Position numbers and translations under genes: made by a program
Notes under the pieces: generated by a model
What the model was told of the DNA's origin: nothing
Seen by the model: only the letters and a program-made list of their open reading frames with translations
Database searches by the model: none
Part shown: positions 22,180 through 64,000 of the stretch, piece after piece
Position numbering within the stretch: position 1 is the stretch's first letter
Layout: every line of letters begins with the position of its first letter
Origin: a virus
Length of the DNA stretch: 64,000 nt
Virus record (IMG/VR): IMGVR_UViG_3300031251_000001
Coordinates: 150,230 to 214,229 of that record
Reading direction: 5' to 3' (one strand)

Positions 22180-22908
22180 TTAAACTTGCCACCAGATACC
22201 GGTCCAGTCGATCTGGTGGATGGGGTTGCGGATGTTGCGGACCTCACGGAAGTTATCAACGGCTTGTCGGCAACCCGGCACGCAGCCGTAGTCATCGACG
22301 ATCACGTAGCCGCCGGGGCTGACCTTCTCGTAGAGGGCCTTGAGGCACTGCCAGGTCGACTCGTAGAGATCACCATCGAGACGAAGCACGGCCAGCTTCT
22401 CGATCGGACCTGGTAGCGTGTCCTTAAACCAGCCTGGCAGGAACTTGACGTTAGGATGCAGGAGGCCATAACGGTTGAAGTTGGACATGACCTCTTCCCG
22501 CGAGACGGCCAGGAACTGCAGACTATGGTGGTTGTCGTTGAGATCGGCAGGGTAGAGCTCAGGGTTAGGCTTAGGGCAGCCCTGGAATGAGTCGACGACC
22601 CAGACATTGCGGACAGGCTGATACGGATGATCGCCGCTGTCCATTCGCTCCTCGACAACCGCTGCCATCATGATGGCACAGCCGCCTTTCCAGACGCCGC
22701 ATTCAGCAAAATCACCAGGAATGCTGCGAGCGTAGACATCCTGGCACAGACGAGTCAGGCTGCAAAGCCGTTCCGTGCCGACCATGGTCTCGGCATCCAT
22801 CGGCCAGTCCCTACCGTGCCTGCGGTCCTGTAGCTTCCTGGGGTCGGTCAGGAACAACTCCCGCGTCAACACTTTCTGCAGGAGATTCAAATAGCGGTTG
22901 TTGACCAT
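22180..22908 (-). CDS. TylF/macrocin-type O-methyltransferase (242 aa)
   Basis: A metal-dependent methyltransferase family that methylates sugar hydroxyls. Residues 65-76 contain the SAM-binding GDFAECGVWKGG, 103-110 have VVDSFQG, 178-180 DGD (LRLDGDLYEST), and 205-206 DD in VDDYG. These match the order in TylF-type enzymes. A sugar substrate is likely by family, but which one is unknown. It lies between the zinc-ribbon gene and a small gene, and near the glycosyltransferase. Confidence 0.85.
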   Translation of the reverse strand: MVNNRYLNLLQKVLTRELFLTDPRKLQDRRHGRDWPMDAETMVGTERLCSLTRLCQDVYARSIPGDFAECGVWKGGCAIMMAAVVEERMDSGDHPYQPVRNVWVVDSFQGCPKPNPELYPADLNDNHHSLQFLAVSREEVMSNFNRYGLLHPNVKFLPGWFKDTLPGPIEKLAVLRLDGDLYESTWQCLKALYEKVSPGGYVIVDDYGCVPGCRQAVDNFREVRNIRNPIHQIDWTGIWWQV

Positions 22909-26638: not shown

Positions 26639-27278
26639 ATTTGGGCTTCTCTCGGTTACAGAGGATGGAAATGGCGAGCTTGAGAGTATGGTACTCCTCA
26701 CGATCAATGTAGAGCGTGAGCAGGTGTTGATTGCCGAAACCGATGTCATGCGTGCGTTCGTGCTTGATGACTCGCACCAGCTTGAGACCGGGTTCCTTGT
26801 TAAGCACATCCATCGTGTCGTCCAGGAACTTGTCGGGTACGGTGAGTCTCACCTCGACCAGGCCCTCACGCTGCAGGCCTATCAGGATGTTTGGTTGGCG
26901 TGCCTTGATCAGGCCGAGACGAAACTTGAACTGCTGAAAGGCAGCGCCGGCTGTATTGGCCTGATGGGCGGCCTCCATGTGCATGTTCCACTTGCCGCTG
27001 TGCGGATTGACGTCTGGAAGTTGAGCAGTGACAGCCCGCTCGGGTTCCTCGAACTTGAAGAACACTGTGTAGATAGTGTCTTCGGAGAACCACAAGCCAC
27101 CTGAGACATTGACCAGGCCGCAGTCGGAATACAGGGTGACCTGGAACCGATCGAGCCAGGGTTCCTTCGTGTTGTTGCCGTCCAACGCCACCATGCCCAG
27201 CGTGAGCAGGTGCTCGTAGACCAGCTTGTCGAAGCGTTTGATGCGTTCTTGAATCTCTTTGGGGACGCGACGTGCCAT
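26433..27278 (-). CDS. Hypothetical protein (281 aa), tail overlaps next gene
   Basis: Residues 1-215 form a coherent alpha/beta protein (FQVTLYSDCGLVNVSGGLWF, LYIDREEYHTLKLAISIL). After residue about 215 the reading frame runs for another 66 codons over the 140-aa gene and becomes basic and low in structure. Either the overlap is real or a frameshift or sequence error removed a stop near 26640. The N-terminal part is well supported; the tail is doubtful. Confidence 0.65.
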   Translation of the reverse strand: MARRVPKEIQERIKRFDKLVYEHLLTLGMVALDGNNTKEPWLDRFQVTLYSDCGLVNVSGGLWFSEDTIYTVFFKFEEPERAVTAQLPDVNPHSGKWNMHMEAAHQANTAGAAFQQFKFRLGLIKARQPNILIGLQREGLVEVRLTVPDKFLDDTMDVLNKEPGLKLVRVIKHERTHDIGFGNQHLLTLYIDREEYHTLKLAISILCNREKPKYVRKLKRPLPPTYAPKRHTSAVRRQQAARRRSHYLLSDRGCYSPSVSIEGMERGLPESVARRHRGENP

Positions 27279-27281
27279 GAG

Positions 27282-27476
27282 TTATCCAATCTGAAGTTGA
27301 CCACGCTTGTTGGTGGTGATGCCTTTGGAGCAAGGGAAAGAGCGACGACCATCTGGCCATGTCACAGATACACGTACTCCGTTACAACCCTCCAGGCTGC
27401 AAGGACGTATATTTCCAGAACACACGCCCTTCTGCTTGCCGTCGCGATCCAAGATGATGGTGCCTTTCTTGAACAT
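27282..27476 (-). CDS. Hypothetical Cys-rich small protein (64 aa)
   Basis: Basic, with four Cys (GVCSGNIRPCSLEGCNG and FPCSKG) that could bind one metal. Starts after the 27.5-kb terminator. Not recognised. Confidence 0.62.
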   Translation of the reverse strand: MFKKGTIILDRDGKQKGVCSGNIRPCSLEGCNGVRVSVTWPDGRRSFPCSKGITTNKRGQLQIG

Positions 27477-39907: not shown

Positions 39908-41641
39908 TTATTCCTCGGGTTGATCAGCTGCGTCCCTCTTCTCCTTGAGGATCTTCACCATCGCCTCCAGCTGCGACAGTGTATCGGCGTCACGGTCGGC
40001 CGTCCGCAGCATGCGCTTAGTGAGAGCACGTTTAGCGTAAAGCACCGTCACCGGCAGACGAGCCATAGCCTGGCCCACCGCTGCTGGACCACGAGAACGG
40101 AAGATGTCGTGGAACTTCTCGTAGAACTCCATGCTGTGCACATGCGTCCCGGTGTCAGCGTTGTCGTGACAGTGCTCATGGGCCAGCAGATGGACCAGGC
40201 TGCTGACGCCATCGACGTCGAACTGGAGCCTTCTCAGGTAGTCCCGGCCGATAGCAATGTAGCTCTCGCCGTCCGTCCAGCCCTCGGCCACCGGGGAGCG
40301 ACCGATGCAGAGCTTACGTCGCTTCTCCCAGCTGTTGCGTTCGCGTTTGATGATCAACCAGTAGGCAACATGAGCCAGCTTGAGCCAGATCCCCTCCAGG
40401 GCGGTGAGGTTCTTCTCGGCGATCAAGTCATAGCTCTCGCTGATCGACTTGATCAGCGACTGGAGACTACAGATCTTGTAGCTGGAACCCAGGTTCATCC
40501 TGTACGATTCCTTCCCTGTCCTGATCTTCCACATGACATCAAGGAACTTACTCAACGACATGTTGAACTTGCGCAGGGTCTCCTCGGCCACCACGAACGC
40601 CAGCTTCTGCTGAAACAGCTTATCAGCCCTGCGGTCACCCAGCGGAGCACTGGTGAGGCGTTCTTTGTACTGGTAGGAACATTGAAAGAACTGCTTGATG
40701 GAATAGTGACGACCTGAGCAAGCGGTGATGATCTTGAGATCAACAGCACCCGCCGGCACCTCATCCTGAGCGATCAAGTCGATGAGGCGTTGGCGTTCGT
40801 CATCGTTCATCGACTCCCTCTTGAGGAGTTCCTTCTGGGCGATCTGGTCGACGAACGGTTTGATCTTCCGCCACACCTTGCAGGACGATTGGACGTCGTT
40901 CCTGGCGAAGTTCACCTCCAGCTGCTGACGGCTGACGATGACGCCGCCTACGCCGAAGTGAGAGCCGGCCATGTCCAGTGTGTGCACGCCCAGGTTGTAA
41001 AGAGCCAGGGTGCCGGCACCACGGGTCAGGCGGATGTAGGCCTCATCGGTGACGAAGTCCCACTTTTCTTTAGCGGGGTCGACGTTGATCTTGGTGCCGT
41101 TGTAGACAACAACACACTGGGCGTACTTGGCCCAGCTGCGGATCAACCGCTCAGTCTCGGCAAAGTCCGAGGGCTTCATCCGCTCGTAGAGCTTGATCTC
41201 GATGCGGCAGCCATCCTTCTCAGGCAGGCCACTCTTGAGGTCGTAGTCCAGACCATCGTCGGCGATGTTGACGTTCATCTCGAATGGGCCGGTACGCCAG
41301 CGGTTGCGACCATAGGAGAACATCTGCCCACGGCCCATGCGGAAGGTGCCGTAGATCTTCTTCTCTTTCTCGGTGTGGGGCTGACCGAAGGTCTCAAAGA
41401 AGTCCTCGATCTGCTTGCGTTCGGCGATGCCGATACCGTTGTCGTCGATGAGGACGCTCTCAGGGGTGACGGTGATGGAGCACTTGGTGGCTTTGGCGTC
41501 CACCGAGTTCATGACCCCTTCGAGCACGGCCTTGGCCAGAGTGCCGGCCTGCCGCTTGATAACGTCCAGGAGGAGCTTCGGGTGCATCCCGAAGCGACGG
41601 CGCTCGATGTTGTCGGTACGTGCGAGTGCGGAAACGGACAT
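39908..41641 (-). CDS. GHKL-type ATPase joined to an HExxH putative metalloprotease (577 aa)
   Basis: The N-terminal region has the Bergerat ATP-binding fold of GHKL proteins: N-box with E41 and N45 (EGVMNSVDA), G1 with D66-D67 (IDDNGIGI), and a glycine loop FRMGRGQMFSYG near 100-111. GHKL proteins include Hsp90, MutL, topoisomerase VI and MORC. Residues about 115-270 continue a beta-rich transducer-like region. The C-terminal part holds LLAHEHCHDNADTG, with HExxH at 488-492 and possible further His ligands (TGTHVHSMEF), a zincin pattern. The fusion would give an ATP-gated peptidase; whether it is active is untested. Strongly coding and intact. Confidence 0.8.
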   Translation of the reverse strand: MSVSALARTDNIERRRFGMHPKLLLDVIKRQAGTLAKAVLEGVMNSVDAKATKCSITVTPESVLIDDNGIGIAERKQIEDFFETFGQPHTEKEKKIYGTFRMGRGQMFSYGRNRWRTGPFEMNVNIADDGLDYDLKSGLPEKDGCRIEIKLYERMKPSDFAETERLIRSWAKYAQCVVVYNGTKINVDPAKEKWDFVTDEAYIRLTRGAGTLALYNLGVHTLDMAGSHFGVGGVIVSRQQLEVNFARNDVQSSCKVWRKIKPFVDQIAQKELLKRESMNDDERQRLIDLIAQDEVPAGAVDLKIITACSGRHYSIKQFFQCSYQYKERLTSAPLGDRRADKLFQQKLAFVVAEETLRKFNMSLSKFLDVMWKIRTGKESYRMNLGSSYKICSLQSLIKSISESYDLIAEKNLTALEGIWLKLAHVAYWLIIKRERNSWEKRRKLCIGRSPVAEGWTDGESYIAIGRDYLRRLQFDVDGVSSLVHLLAHEHCHDNADTGTHVHSMEFYEKFHDIFRSRGPAAVGQAMARLPVTVLYAKRALTKRMLRTADRDADTLSQLEAMVKILKEKRDAADQPEE

Positions 41642-58678: not shown

Positions 58679-58738
58679 CCGTGAGGCCTCATGCGGTGTA
58701 AGCTGATCGCAGGCAATAATGCCACCAGAGGACCTCGC

Positions 58739-60325
58739 ATGCTAGATCAGAAACGAGTTGTGCTACCAGGTAGCGACCGCAAACCCTTAGAGGGTGCCAC
58801 GGTTGCAGCCGGCCACCGTCATAGTGAAAGGTTTGAGGTCACCGTGCGTCTGCGACGCAAGGCACCAATCAAACCCGAAGGAGCCCAACACGAGGATGTC
58901 CTTCCCGCTGATCGCAAGTATATGACCTGTGATCAGTATCTTGCACAGCATGGTGCCAAGCAGGAAGATGTTGATTTGGTGACAGCGTTTGCCAAGTTGT
59001 ACGGTCTGACGGTAGTCGATGTCAGCCTGGCACGCCGTAGTGTGTTCTTGTCGGGTTGTACCGAGCAGTTTGAGAAGGCCTTCAGTACCACGATCGCTGA
59101 CATGGAGCACCCTGGTGGCGGTTATCGCGGCCGAACTGGTCCACTCACAATCCCCGAGAGCCTGTCAGGCATCGTGGAAGCTGTGTTGGGCATCGACAAC
59201 CGCAAGATCGCCAAGCCCCACTTCCAGATGGCTAAGAGGCTGCAGGGTGCGACACCACACGCCAGCCACTCTTCCTACAATCCCAACGATGTCGCCAAGG
59301 CGTACAACTTCCCCACCGGGGTAGATGGTACGGGACAGTGCATTGCCTTGATCGAGCTCGGTGGCGGTTATCGTCTGCCTGACATCACCGCCTACTTCAC
59401 CAAGCTGGGACTGAAGGTGCCCACCGTGAAGACCGTGCGCGTTGATGGCGGCACCAACTCACCGACCACCGCCGATGGCGCTGACGGTGAAGTGATGCTG
59501 GATATCGAAGTAGCGGCAGCAGTGGCACCAGGTGCCACCATTGTCGTCTACTTTGCTCCCAACACCGATAAGGGCTTCCTTGACGCGATCACCATGGCCG
59601 CTCACGACACGGTCAACAAGCCTTCGGTCATCTCCATCAGCTGGGGTGGACCGGAAGCACAGTGGACCGTGCAGGCTCGCGTCGCCATGGATCAGGCGTT
59701 CATCTCAGCCTCCGTGCTGGGTCTGACCATCTGTGTGGCTGGCGGCGACAATGGTTCGACCGATGGCATGACTGACGGCAAGAACCACGTGGACTTCCCC
59801 GGCTCGAGCCCACACGCTCTTTGCTGCGGCGGAACACGACTGGGAATCGGCAGCTCCGGGCAAATCAGCTCGGAATCTGTGTGGAACGATAATCCCACAC
59901 AGAGCGCCACCGGTGGCGGTATCAGTGATGCCTTCAACGTGCCGGTCTATCAGAAGTCCGCTAACATCCCTCCCTCGGCTAATCCCAACAAGAAGTCGGG
60001 ACGCGGATGTCCGGATGTGGCCGGCAATGCTGATCCTTCCTCGGGTTACAACGTCCGCGTGGACGGTGGAAACTATGTGATTGGCGGCACCAGTGCGGTT
60101 GCTCCGCTCTATGCCGGACTGGTAGCACTCTTAAACCAGAAGCTGGGACACCGTTGCGGCTACCTCCACCCGCTGCTGTATGGCAGCGTGCAGGGCAAGG
60201 GAGCCTTCAACGACATCACGTCTGGTAACAACGGTGCTTACCACGCCCAAAAGGGCTGGGATTGCTGCACAGGGCTGGGCACACCCAACGGGCAGGCCCT
60301 CTATATTGCCCTGGGCGGCAAATAG
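58739..60325 (+). CDS. Sedolisin-family (S53) serine-carboxyl protease, pro-kumamolisin type (528 aa)
   Basis: Endopeptidase with an N-terminal activation domain (residues about 1-170, MLDQKRVVLPGSDRKPLEGA, then KYMTCDQYLAQHGA and FLSGCTEQFEKAFSTTI) and a catalytic domain. The catalytic tetrad is complete: E251 and D255 (EVMLDIEV), D337 (GGDNGS), S452 (GGTSAVAP). The C-terminal TGLGTPNG region near the end fits the calcium site. It is one of two plus-strand genes, between S6 and R7, with an AGAGGA before the ATG. No signal peptide is evident. Function could be in secretion by host lysis or virion processing. Confidence 0.92.
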   Translation: MLDQKRVVLPGSDRKPLEGATVAAGHRHSERFEVTVRLRRKAPIKPEGAQHEDVLPADRKYMTCDQYLAQHGAKQEDVDLVTAFAKLYGLTVVDVSLARRSVFLSGCTEQFEKAFSTTIADMEHPGGGYRGRTGPLTIPESLSGIVEAVLGIDNRKIAKPHFQMAKRLQGATPHASHSSYNPNDVAKAYNFPTGVDGTGQCIALIELGGGYRLPDITAYFTKLGLKVPTVKTVRVDGGTNSPTTADGADGEVMLDIEVAAAVAPGATIVVYFAPNTDKGFLDAITMAAHDTVNKPSVISISWGGPEAQWTVQARVAMDQAFISASVLGLTICVAGGDNGSTDGMTDGKNHVDFPGSSPHALCCGGTRLGIGSSGQISSESVWNDNPTQSATGGGISDAFNVPVYQKSANIPPSANPNKKSGRGCPDVAGNADPSSGYNVRVDGGNYVIGGTSAVAPLYAGLVALLNQKLGHRCGYLHPLLYGSVQGKGAFNDITSGNNGAYHAQKGWDCCTGLGTPNGQALYIALGGK

Positions 60326-60349: not shown

Positions 60350-62200
60350 TTAACTGGAAGCCAAGGCCTTCTCGGGGGCCTTGGCTTTCTTGATGCCTAA
60401 CAGCTTATCTTCCTGATCCTGTAGCTTGGCAAGCTGCTCATTACTTATCTTGAGCAGATTCCTCATCTGTTGATGGATGAGAGTGAAATGACGAGCACCA
60501 CCCGCGACAGGGCAGTCGATGTAGACGTCCTTACCCTTCTTGCCGTCGTAGCGTCTGAGCTTCTCGTGGGCGGCGTGCAGCTTCTTATTGAACTTCTGTG
60601 CCTTAACGACCAAGTTGCGGATCTTGATCACGTTATGCAGATCGTAGAGGGTGGCTGTCTCTTCGCTCAGATCGGTGTAGGCCTTGCCAGTTAAAACACA
60701 GTCATCCTCAAACCAAGAATGCCTGTCGCCTTGATCGATGAGATCGTACCAGATCAGGTAGTGGAAGACCGGGCCTTCCTCTTTGAGGTGGACGATCAGA
60801 TCCATGGGCGTGCCGTTGATGAAAGCAGCCGAATCAGGTTCCTCCTCCCTGGCCCCCAGGTAGAACGGCAAGCGATGCCCATTCCATGTGATGCTGGAAG
60901 CAGCGAGCAGGTAGACGCTGTTACCTGGTGCTGGTTTCCCTGACGGTTCGGTCACTTGGATATCCACCAGCTCTTGAGCCTTCTTGGTGTCAAGAAAGTT
61001 TCTCATGATGGGGTGCTGCGGGCCGGCGTAGAACTCCTCGGTGGTGTCAAGGAACTCCTCCCAGTTAAGCAGCGTGTTGATGAGACCATCATCTACCACT
61101 GACTGGCCACCCTGAACGTAGAGATCCATCTCCTCTTCCCTGGATTTGATACCCTCGTCCTGGACATAGTCAAAGCTGCAGTTCTCGTAGTCCTGGGAAC
61201 TGTAATGCCTCCAACCCAGGCTGCGTACCAGGGCCACGCGATGACGATTGAGCCACTGATCCAACTCCGTCATATCTTTACGTTCGTTATGAGTGAACAG
61301 CTCCGGTAGTGTCGTCATCACGGGTCGCAACCTGGCCACGTAAGCAGACCATCGCGACTTGAAGTAGTGCAATACGTAGTCACGCAGCGCTGTGAGGATC
61401 TGCTGCATGGCTGATTTGAGTTGGGGTGAGTCGATGAGGATGGAACGATCGGGGAGCTTGGGCCGGACACCCGATTCGGGATCGACAAACCAGATGAAGT
61501 TTTTCAGTTCCTCATCGATGGGCAGAGTTTTTGCCTCTTTAAGGTACTCATCTGCCTTACCGCTGCGAAGGTAACGATAGTCCCATACCGGCTCTGGATG
61601 GTTAATGAAGTAAGGACTTGACCTTAAACCCAGCAGCACACGCCCCACCGGCGTCATGAGATCTACCAGGAGATCACCATCCATGCGTTGTGTGATCAGG
61701 TTGCCGTTAAGGGTGAGGGTGAAAGGGTACAGGGCGCGAGCAGTGCTGATGGCGTGGTCCAGCTCCTTCTTCTTGCTGGTGGACAGTATCAGCTTGAGGT
61801 AGAAACCAGGAACGCCTTCTTCCTCAATAGGTTGAATGTCTTTGTCGATCCAGTTCTTGGTGTCAAACTTGACCTTCCAGTTCTTGGAGCGGACAGTCAC
61901 CTCGGTGAACAGATCAGGGTTGAGGAGGCTGAAGAAGCCCATGCCGGCAGGAGAGGTGACCTTGGTGCGATCCCAGCCGGTCTCACCGCCCTCCACGAGT
62001 AGCTGAGGATCTTCACAGCCACGACCGTCGTCCAGGATGGTCAAGACGGTACATTCGGGATCGGTGATGACCGTGACGTTCTTGGCGCCGGCACGGTAGC
62101 AGTTCTGCAGGATCTCAGCCAGGGTGGCATCGAAGCCACCAAAGAAACGAGTCAGCTCAGGCAGGATCGCCTGGCTGACGTGAGCACGAATCGTCTTCAT
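60350..62200 (-). CDS. GHKL-type ATPase (616 aa)
   Basis: Residues 29-33 (EILQN) form the N-box, 57-61 (DDGRG) the G1 motif, 86-89 (GMGF) the G2 region. These are the Hsp90/MutL/topoisomerase VI type ATP-binding motifs. The rest of the protein (residues 110-616) shows alpha/beta and helical segments with no further recognised domain. The N-terminal order of motifs matches the Hsp90/MORC family. Possibly a chaperone-like or DNA-remodelling protein. The C-terminus ends AKAPEKALASS. Confidence 0.8.
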   Translation of the reverse strand: MKTIRAHVSQAILPELTRFFGGFDATLAEILQNCYRAGAKNVTVITDPECTVLTILDDGRGCEDPQLLVEGGETGWDRTKVTSPAGMGFFSLLNPDLFTEVTVRSKNWKVKFDTKNWIDKDIQPIEEEGVPGFYLKLILSTSKKKELDHAISTARALYPFTLTLNGNLITQRMDGDLLVDLMTPVGRVLLGLRSSPYFINHPEPVWDYRYLRSGKADEYLKEAKTLPIDEELKNFIWFVDPESGVRPKLPDRSILIDSPQLKSAMQQILTALRDYVLHYFKSRWSAYVARLRPVMTTLPELFTHNERKDMTELDQWLNRHRVALVRSLGWRHYSSQDYENCSFDYVQDEGIKSREEEMDLYVQGGQSVVDDGLINTLLNWEEFLDTTEEFYAGPQHPIMRNFLDTKKAQELVDIQVTEPSGKPAPGNSVYLLAASSITWNGHRLPFYLGAREEEPDSAAFINGTPMDLIVHLKEEGPVFHYLIWYDLIDQGDRHSWFEDDCVLTGKAYTDLSEETATLYDLHNVIKIRNLVVKAQKFNKKLHAAHEKLRRYDGKKGKDVYIDCPVAGGARHFTLIHQQMRNLLKISNEQLAKLQDQEDKLLGIKKAKAPEKALASS

Positions 62201-62233: not shown

Positions 62234-63529
62234 TTATTCGCCTGCAATTACAGGCTCTTCGACGGCCTTGCCCATGTACAGGAACTCGACCCCGGCCTCA
62301 GTGCAATGGCGCTCAAGTTCCCCCTTGAGCTGGAACCACGGGAAGCGGGGCACGAAGTTCTGGATCGAGTCGTCGTACTTAATGGAAGAGACATCGTTCC
62401 GCAGGGCGAACTGCACGACCTGGCAGCAGGTCTGCAGGATAAAGGTTTTGATACGGTTGTTGTGCTTCCTGGCCCAAAGATCGGCGTCACGCAGGAGACG
62501 CTCCTTCTTGGCCTTGGGGATGCGCATCTCGTGTTTGAGGTCCTGGGACTGGCGGTGCTGCCGGCGTCCGTACTGATAGCACCAGTCACGCACACGGTCA
62601 GCATTAACGACCCAGGGCTCCTCACGGTCCTGGAGGATGCCATAGAGGAGCGACTCCTCAGTAGTGCTGATGTTGAAGAAGCGCTCCTTCTCCAGCTTCT
62701 CCCTGGTCTTGCGTGGGGCATTGACCACGAGCTTGCACATCAGTCGATTGACGGGTCGGGAGGGCTTATTGCCTTGCGGTATATTACTCCTGTGATCACC
62801 CTCGTTGGCTCGCATCTGGTAGAGAGCGATCTCATTGCACTCAGCCTCTCCGTCGAGCACCTGCTGCAGCACTCCGAGCTGACGCCAGTATTGCGACTTA
62901 GAACCTGACAACCGCAGCGTGGTGTGCTCCTTCTGCCCCATCAGACGCATCTTGACACCGAAGGCTTCAGGGAGCTTTTCTTTAGCGGGTAACTTCACCA
63001 GCTTGCTGTCATTGGTGGAGTAAGGCTGCGGGTAGCGGAACGACGGCAGTGATTGCTTGCCGGTCCAGATCACCTCATAGCGGGCAGCGGCATAGATCTT
63101 CTGCACCAGGTTCTCGGCGATGGCCCGCATGGCAGGGTGGATCCGGAAACTAGCCGTCTCCTGGTAGAGATAAGGCCTATCCCAGGTGGGCATTTTCGCC
63201 ATCGTGCCATCACGAACGATGTCACGGAGGAACATCTGGCGGATGAGGAAGTTCTTGAGCCTGGTCGCTTCGGCGAACGAGTCGCGAAGCAAGGGCCGCA
63301 GGTCTTCCCAAGTGATGCCGTCAGGTGCAGTGACCGGGATGGTTATCGCAAAAGTGCGATAATCCCTCTTGTAGCACTTGTTGCAGATGAGCTTATCACC
63401 CTTGAGCTTCCAACCCTTGGGTATTTTAGCAGTGCCGTCTTTGCCCGGCTTGGACTTGCCCTTGTTGACGCAGCCCTCATTGGCGCAATACGTCTCCATC
63501 AGATTCGGTTTGGTTTCGACGATTGACAT
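62234..63529 (-). CDS. TnpB/Cas12-like protein, apparently nuclease-dead (431 aa)
   Basis: N-terminal zinc ribbon (C15, C20, C49, C52). Residues about 60-260 read like the recognition/wedge part of compact TnpB/Cas12 proteins (ASFRIHPAMRAIAENLVQKI; SLPSFRYPQP near 160-169). Residues 280-330 cover the RuvC-I position: RFFNISTTEESLLYGILQ, where the expected GxDxG Asp is replaced by Ser/Thr. Residues 316-385 carry RRQHRQSQDLKHE, RKHNNRIKTF and the RuvC-II position SIKYDDS, Asp instead of Glu. PRFPWFQLKGEL near 394-405 matches the region after RuvC-II. The C-terminal zinc finger and RuvC-III are missing. It resembles known nuclease-dead TnpB-derived repressors (TldR). The match is by eye, not by search. 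Confidence 0.6.
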   Translation of the reverse strand: MSIVETKPNLMETYCANEGCVNKGKSKPGKDGTAKIPKGWKLKGDKLICNKCYKRDYRTFAITIPVTAPDGITWEDLRPLLRDSFAEATRLKNFLIRQMFLRDIVRDGTMAKMPTWDRPYLYQETASFRIHPAMRAIAENLVQKIYAAARYEVIWTGKQSLPSFRYPQPYSTNDSKLVKLPAKEKLPEAFGVKMRLMGQKEHTTLRLSGSKSQYWRQLGVLQQVLDGEAECNEIALYQMRANEGDHRSNIPQGNKPSRPVNRLMCKLVVNAPRKTREKLEKERFFNISTTEESLLYGILQDREEPWVVNADRVRDWCYQYGRRQHRQSQDLKHEMRIPKAKKERLLRDADLWARKHNNRIKTFILQTCCQVVQFALRNDVSSIKYDDSIQNFVPRFPWFQLKGELERHCTEAGVEFLYMGKAVEEPVIAGE

Positions 63530-63569
63530 AAAAACTCCTTATTGGGAAGCGAAGACTCACCCCATCACG

Positions 63570-63596
63570 AAGAAAGCCACTGCACTATGCAGCGGC
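63570..63596 (-). terminator. Intrinsic terminator next to S7
   Basis: Nine-bp stem GCCGCUGCA-UAG-UGCAGUGGC on the minus strand (one G-U), followed by UUUCUUCG. Ends one nucleotide after element S7, so S7 may be carried at the 3' end of a transcript. Confidence 0.75.
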
Positions 63597-63597
63597 T

Positions 63598-63663
63598 CGT
63601 TGTACCGGCGAGTGTCCACCAGGGACACCCTAACCAGTGGTAGGCGGGATGGACGCCCCTTAG
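63598..63663 (-). ncRNA. 66-nt structured element, copy S7
   Basis: Overlaps the stop codon of the partial gene at 63660 by three nucleotides and is followed, one nucleotide on, by a terminator hairpin. Stem A GGCG/CGCC and stem B six pairs (GTGTCC with GGACAC) are present. 69 nt upstream of the TnpB-like gene. Confidence 0.75.
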
Positions 63664-64000
63664 TTGATTGGCTGACCTGTGGGACCGAGGATGCTGCCTG
63701 GTTTGCGGACTTCCAGTTCAGCGGGATCAGGTGGCAGCTCAGGGACATTATCGAACAGACACAGATAGCTGGTGGGATGCTTGCCATTGATCAAGGGCAG
63801 CTTGTCCAGGTCGGTTTGCAGCTGGGCTTCAGGGTTAGGTATCCGTGCGACGGTGATTTTCTGCGGGATGACGTAGCCACCCATGGTGCAGGCCTGCCAG
63901 ATGCGATCATCGTGGTCAAAGACTTGCTCCACGGAGGAGTATTCATCGAGATCCTTCTGTCGTGCGTCGCAGAAGTAGTAAGCAACGACATCCCAGTAGA
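63660..64000 (-). CDS. Hypothetical protein, 5' end beyond window (113 codons visible)
   Basis: The frame is open to the window edge, reading YWDVVAYYFCDARQKDLDEY before the first in-window GTG, so the true start is outside. The visible part contains CTMGGYVIPQKITVARIPNP and an acidic C-terminal half. Not recognised. Confidence 0.6.
   Translation of the reverse strand, partial: YWDVVAYYFCDARQKDLDEYSSVEQVFDHDDRIWQACTMGGYVIPQKITVARIPNPEAQLQTDLDKLPLINGKHPTSYLCLFDNVPELPPDPAELEVRKPGSILGPTGQPIN

What the first reader, a model, noticed from the sequence alone, without database searches (positions are those of the whole stretch)
62234..63529. Phage-encoded TnpB/Cas12-like protein that has lost its nuclease centre
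Residues where RuvC-I Asp and RuvC-II Glu are expected read S/T (FNISTTEE) and D (IKYDDS), and the protein ends before RuvC-III and the C-terminal zinc finger. TnpB-derived nuclease-dead repressors (TldR) with such losses are known to act as RNA-guided transcription factors. A phage copy with an extra N-terminal zinc ribbon would be unusual.
Basis: partly seen in the sequence, partly recalled or inferred. Interest (0 to 1): 0.82.

Follow-up and report, generated by a model that had tools for sequence, protein, structure and literature searches.

The report
Nuclease-dead Cas12f relative in jumbo phage
A large bacterial virus carries a shortened cousin of the gene-editing enzyme Cas12f that has lost its DNA-cutting centre but kept most of the rest of the protein; it probably grips nucleic acids rather than cutting them, which adds a strongly altered example to a known theme.

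Summary
Window 62234-63529 (-) is one intact 431-aa gene near the end of a complete-looking circular ~214 kb phage genome. It is a very divergent member of the Cas12f (V-U3) branch of the TnpB/Cas12 superfamily. Profile hits: PADLOC Cas12f E=2.7e-7, Cas12u3 E=1e-6, NCBIfam TnpB E=3.6e-4. A collinear whole-length alignment to Cas12f scores z=9.8 over shuffles. It aligns with Ser288 at the RuvC-I Asp and Asp386 at the RuvC-II Glu. It stops just before the TNB zinc finger and RuvC-III, and another gene starts 33 nt later. So it should not cleave DNA by the RuvC mechanism. TldR is not the best label: it is nearer Cas12f than IS605 TnpB. I found no adjacent guide-RNA gene, CRISPR array, transposase or partner gene. 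Its codon usage is that of a resident gene. No close relative turned up in the collections searched. The nearest protein found is a Cas12f-like protein of phage Rctr197k, also altered at RuvC-I (Asp to His) and next to a small CRISPR array. Most likely role: RNA-bound (guide in trans) DNA-binding regulator or decoy; untested. A new, strongly reduced variant of a known kind (natural dead Cas12/TnpB), not a new category.

The parts
62234..63529 (-). 431-aa Cas12f-like (V-U3-like) protein lacking a complete RuvC catalytic centre
   Evidence: PADLOC Cas12f E=2.7e-7 and Cas12u3 E=1e-6; NCBIfam guided_TnpB E=3.6e-4; glocal z=9.8; HMM E=6.8e-7 with Rctr197k relative included
63374..63487 (-). N-terminal zinc-ribbon-like motif C15-X4-C20 ... 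C49-X2-C52, ahead of the first WED strand
   Evidence: cysteine positions; modelled at pLDDT about 70-79; absent from the aligned phage Cas12f rows
63029..63052 (-). SLPSFRYP (160-167), matching the Cas12f WED motif (R/K)G-x-SIPSFK-x-D-x-P
62654..62677 (-). RuvC-I region FNISTTEE (285-292); Ser288 at the catalytic Asp position
   Evidence: Asp in 30 of 31 relatives aligned
62366..62383 (-). RuvC-II region IKYDDS (383-388); Asp386 at the catalytic Glu position
   Evidence: register test and HMM alignment; Glu in 30 of 31 relatives
62270..62341 (-). PWFQLKGELERHCTEAGVEFLYMG (397-420), counterpart of Cas12f W-x-Y-x-x-L...GI-x-V; the protein ends shortly after, before TNB and RuvC-III
63530..63659 (-). 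130-nt upstream gap with strong predicted RNA structure, including a terminator-like hairpin (63576-63593); unproven as a guide RNA
   Evidence: z=-3.0 but 7th of 31 gaps in this genome; terminator-like site; no Rfam match
60350..62200 (-). Next gene in the same direction, 33 nt downstream: 616-aa GHKL/HATPase-like protein; leaves little room for a 3' guide-RNA cassette
   Evidence: PF13589 E=6.7e-5, below cut-off

Best explanation
A Cas12f (V-U3)-derived protein that a jumbo phage has kept as a resident gene after loss of the nuclease centre: RuvC-I Asp to Ser288, RuvC-II Glu to Asp386, RuvC-III and TNB zinc finger gone. Shown: homology, substitutions, truncation, intact reading frame, resident codon usage, no CRISPR array or IS200-type TnpA in the genome. 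Inferred: it still binds a structured RNA through WED/REC, and either uses an RNA guide supplied in trans to bind DNA and block transcription, as Cas12m and TldR do, or works as a nucleic-acid-binding regulator without cleavage. I put 'Cas12f-derived, RuvC-inactive, retained' at about 0.93 and 'RNA-guided DNA binding that controls transcription' at about 0.4; the confidence below is for the combined statement.
For: Homology; the structure model built with Cas12f homologues finds Cas12f first in the PDB (best E=3.3e-14; partly circular). Inactivation. Retention: intact ORF, good RBS, typical codon usage (rank 49 of 79 genes, GC3 0.75 against mean 0.70). Basic protein, pI 9.5. Precedents: Cas12m2 with an HDD centre silences by binding (PMC10442227); RuvC inactivation recurs in type V (PMC12669027); phage TldR represses host fliC (PMC13418256). 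The nearest relative found, in phage Rctr197k, is also altered at RuvC-I and has a CRISPR array next to it.
Against: No guide RNA, CRISPR array or repeat was found, and the usual 3' position is occupied by the next gene. The structured upstream gap is not unusual for this genome and contains a terminator-like hairpin. Loss of TNB and the last RuvC segment may weaken DNA binding as well. No relatives close enough to show purifying selection.
Confidence: 0.42

Rival explanations
1. Anti-CRISPR-like decoy: the inactive Cas12f relative captures guide RNAs (crRNA/tracrRNA) of a host type V-F system, or occupies its dimer partner (Cas12f works as a dimer), and so protects the phage.
For: Precedent of phage Cas9 with inactivated RuvC proposed to sequester crRNA (PMC11656645, PMC12669027). 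No own guide source found in the phage. Cas12f effectors act as dimers (PMC10442227).
Against: Only about 15% identity to known Cas12f, so binding a host's Cas12f guide is doubtful. Host unknown.
Confidence: 0.15
2. Non-guided role: the Cas12f scaffold has become an ordinary RNA- or DNA-binding protein (for example a regulator using the N-terminal zinc ribbon), with no programmable targeting left.
For: Added N-terminal zinc ribbon, lost TNB, no guide RNA found, extreme divergence.
Against: The WED motif SLPSFR and whole-length collinearity with Cas12f are kept, as if the RNA-binding architecture is still under constraint.
Confidence: 0.22
3. Relic: a captured tnpB/cas12f gene on its way out, without function.
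For: Loss of active site and C-terminus; no relatives found to demonstrate selection.
Against: 431 codons without a stop, good RBS, typical phage codon usage despite great divergence: a decaying gene this old should carry stops or frameshifts.
Confidence: 0.14
4. Still a nuclease with a rearranged catalytic site.
For: TnpB-like proteins with altered RuvC-II exist (Bacillus phage G gp662 has Gly at the Glu position).
Against: Two of the three catalytic positions are lost outright here (Asp to Ser288, RuvC-III missing), with no replacement visible.
Confidence: 0.04

Closest known systems
Cas12f / V-U3 (Cas12u3) effectors, including those in IMG/VR phages L011-L041 and AsCas12f/OsCas12f in the PDB
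   Same: Collinear WED-REC-RuvC layout; best profile and fold matches; similar size
   Different: RuvC-I Asp to Ser, RuvC-II Glu to Asp, no RuvC-III, no TNB zinc finger, extra N-terminal zinc ribbon, no CRISPR array, about 15% identity
Virus Rctr197k Rctr197k_117 (APU88923.1, P0002)
   Same: Cas12u3-like protein of a phage of about 200 kb with an altered RuvC-I residue; adding it to the profile lifts the window protein from 18.8 to 25.8 bits
   Different: Only RuvC-I is changed (Asp to His); TNB and RuvC-III kept; a 4-repeat CRISPR array lies about 240 nt downstream
TldR (TnpB-like nuclease-dead repressors)
   Same: Naturally inactivated RuvC in the TnpB superfamily, phage-encoded in the fliC group (PMC13418256)
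   Different: No gRNA cassette or fliC/csrA neighbour found; sequence nearer Cas12f than TnpB; the C-terminus is missing here
Cas12m (V-M)
   Same: Non-canonical RuvC with Asp at the RuvC-II position (HDD); binds without cleaving (PMC10442227)
   Different: Cas12m2 keeps TNB and RuvC-III and works with a crRNA
Natural dCas12f (PDB 9n9c, 9n9m)
   Same: By its PDB title a dCas12f bound to gRNA; among the Foldseek matches (E=2.6e-10)
   Different: The sigma-factor partnership I recall for natural dCas12f was not tested here; the only sigma-70 gene found in this phage is about 29 kb away

Membership tests
TnpB/Cas12 superfamily (Cas12f branch) | Significant profile similarity over WED/REC and RuvC | tested here: met
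TnpB/Cas12 superfamily (Cas12f branch) | RuvC (RNase H-like) fold with Cas12f arrangement | tested here: inconclusive
   Model pLDDT 64, pTM 0.48, built with a Cas12f alignment; Foldseek finds Cas12f first but this is partly circular
Active Cas12f / type V-F CRISPR effector | DED catalytic triad | tested here: not met
   S288, D386, RuvC-III absent
Active Cas12f / type V-F CRISPR effector | CRISPR array nearby | tested here: not met
   No repeat array in the 214-kb contig
Active Cas12f / type V-F CRISPR effector | C-terminal TNB zinc finger | tested here: not met
TldR | TnpB-superfamily protein with inactivated RuvC | tested here: met
TldR | Derived from a TnpB clade rather than from Cas12f | tested here: inconclusive
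   TnpB-only profile misses it; Cas12f/Cas12u3 profiles hit; too divergent for a tree
TldR | Adjacent gRNA cassette with a guide matching a promoter | tested here: inconclusive
   No Rfam hit, no 14-nt match of the upstream gap elsewhere in the phage; 33 nt of 3' space; host unknown
TldR | RNA-guided DNA binding and repression | not testable with these tools
   needs RIP-seq, ChIP-seq or a reporter assay
IS200/IS605 transposon | TnpA (Y1 transposase) nearby | tested here: not met
   No PF01797 match in the genome

The most novel reading that the evidence does not exclude
A minimal, nuclease-less Cas12f derivative that has lost RuvC-III and TNB and gained an N-terminal zinc ribbon, and works in a jumbo phage as an RNA-guided regulator using guide RNAs supplied in trans (own dispersed small RNA or hijacked host crRNA), forming a lineage apart from TldR, Cas12m, Cas12k and dCas12f.
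Probability: 0.2. Interest if true: 0.75.

Novelty: new variant of a known kind. Interest (0 to 1): 0.52.

Why it matters
Natural inactivation of Cas12/TnpB has produced RNA-guided repressors and transposition-targeting factors. This is a further, apparently independent case in a jumbo phage, on the Cas12f branch, with the C-terminal end of the nuclease lobe removed altogether. If it still binds RNA and DNA, it would show how little of Cas12f is needed for guided binding and would be a natural small dCas12f scaffold; if it binds host guides, it would be a new anti-CRISPR route.

Tried and rejected
Close relatives: protein and degenerate-pattern scans of IMG/VR and GTDB genomes, tblastn of GenBank phages and plasmids: none. 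The pattern scans miss relatives below about 60% identity (my estimate), so 'orphan' is not proven. Artificial motif alignments led nowhere. Single-sequence AlphaFold failed (pLDDT 35). hhalign of the lone sequence against six Cas12f was weak. Frameshift as cause of the missing C-terminus: rejected, the next gene starts 33 nt later and no TNB match lies nearby. Upstream structured RNA as guide RNA: not supported. CRISPR array or Rctr197k-like repeat near the gene: none. RuvC-II register with Asn378/Asp379 (MAFFT) rejected in favour of Asp386; the AlphaFold alignment used the rejected register, so the model is unreliable around residues 369-395.

Full report
What is there. The window is contig positions 150230-214229 of a 214,229-base virus record. 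The record's ends overlap by 126 identical bases, so the genome is most likely circular, about 214.1 kb, 57.6% GC. The gene at 62234-63529 (-) is one uninterrupted 431-codon ORF with a good ribosome-binding site (63535-63540). Its codon usage is ordinary for this phage: rank 49 of 79 long genes, GC3 0.75 against a mean of 0.70. It is neither a recent insertion by composition nor a visibly decaying gene.

Is it TnpB/Cas12? Yes, but far from canonical members. Pfam and PHROGs find nothing. NCBIfam guided_TnpB matches at E=3.6e-4, PADLOC Cas12f at E=2.7e-7 over residues 261-418 and Cas12u3 at E=1e-6 over residues 140-418; the best PDB sequence is OsCas12f (9nzq, E=0.025) with two collinear segments (named). 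I collected phage Cas12f proteins and built a position-specific profile from them. Aligned over its length, the protein scores 56.5 half-bits; 1,893 shuffles give a mean of 8.5, s.d. 4.9 and maximum 32.6 (z=9.8), and the best of 47 other ORFs of this phage scores 16.8. An HMM of Cas12f plus phage TnpB finds it at 18.8 bits, with the best decoy at 6.7 bits, whereas a TnpB-only HMM does not find it. It is therefore on the Cas12f (V-U3) side. An AlphaFold model with the Cas12f alignment rises from pLDDT 35 to 64, and its best PDB matches are Cas12f structures. That test is partly circular because the alignment assumed the homology.

The active site. The RuvC-I strand aligns as (F)FNISTTEE against (M)GIDLG, putting Ser288 at the Asp. 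For RuvC-II two registers are possible. MAFFT puts Asn378/Asp379 opposite the Glu. The ungapped register with Asp386 is the best for 12 of the 16 relatives whose motif the script recognised, and the combined HMM also chooses it, so I take Glu to Asp386. Either way there is no Glu. In 31 aligned relatives RuvC-I is Asp in 30, RuvC-II is Glu in 30, and RuvC-III is Asp in all. The protein stops before TSQxCxxC, so the TNB zinc finger and RuvC-III are missing, and the next gene (60350-62200, GHKL-like) starts 33 nt later. No TNB match lies near the gene. A DNA-cutting RuvC is therefore very unlikely. The N-terminus carries C15-X4-C20...C49-X2-C52, which the aligned relatives lack.

The nearest relative found. 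Foldseek's best viral match was A0A1P8DIN8, 467 aa. A tblastn with a Cas12f led to phage Rctr197k (KX853510.1), whose 'transposase-like protein' is also 467 aa; I take them to be the same protein from the equal length, and did not confirm the accession link. It is a Cas12u3-like protein (E=3e-34) with RuvC-I Asp changed to His, Glu and RuvC-III Asp kept, and a 4-repeat CRISPR array about 240 nt downstream. Adding it to the profile raises the window protein to 25.8 bits, E=6.8e-7. Phages of this size class thus carry more than one altered-RuvC Cas12f relative.

Guide RNA and partners. There is no CRISPR-like array in the genome, no TnpA, and no Rfam match around the gene. The 3' side has 33 nt before the next gene. 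The 130-nt 5' gap folds well (z=-3.0), but six other gaps of this genome score more extremely and it contains a terminator-like hairpin. A single sigma-70-like gene was found about 29 kb away on the circle; nothing ties it to this gene.

How it most likely works. By established knowledge of Cas12m2 (HDD centre, silencing by tight binding; PMC10442227), of type V inactivation in general (PMC12669027) and of phage TldR (PMC13418256), a dead Cas12/TnpB that a genome keeps usually acts by guided binding. Here the guide would have to come in trans. Rivals are a guide-sequestering decoy (precedent: phage dead Cas9; PMC11656645), a non-guided nucleic-acid-binding protein, or a relic. The data fix the anatomy and not the mechanism.

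Limits. No close relatives were found in IMG/VR, GTDB genomes, GenBank phages or PLSDB, but the pattern-based scans reach close relatives only. Selection could not be measured, and the host is unknown.

Noticed in passing
22 places in the contig; in the window at about 8246, 14992, 21938, 30449, 35906, 52941, 60330: Near-identical palindrome CAAAATACGTATTTTG (core AAATACGTATTT) occurs 22 times in 214 kb, mostly between genes or just before starts; about 0.003 expected by base composition (my estimate). Possibly an operator or promoter element.
   Followed up: partly
L057:4004-5899 (KX853510.1 119281-121176): Virus Rctr197k encodes a Cas12f-like protein with RuvC-I Asp changed to His, beside a 4-repeat, 36-nt-repeat CRISPR array with spacers of roughly 36-39 nt.
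   Followed up: partly
contig ends (window 63874-63999 and contig 1-126): 126-base identical end overlap: the record is probably a complete circular or circularly permuted genome.
   Followed up: yes
58691-60325 (+): 544-aa sedolisin/kumamolisin-like protease with pro-domain (PF09286 E=2.9e-13), unusual for a phage.
   Followed up: no
60350-62200 (-) and 39908-41641 (-): Two large GHKL/HATPase-like proteins.
   Followed up: no
contig 26732-27358 (L004:6732-7358, -): Phage-encoded sigma-70-like factor, regions 2 and 4.
   Followed up: partly
22180-22908 (-): TylF-like O-methyltransferase (E=1.6e-86), a candidate auxiliary metabolic gene.
   Followed up: no
L053:363-1562 (Bacillus phage G gp662): TnpB-like protein with Gly at the RuvC-II Glu position and no TNB cysteine motif at the usual place.
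   Followed up: no
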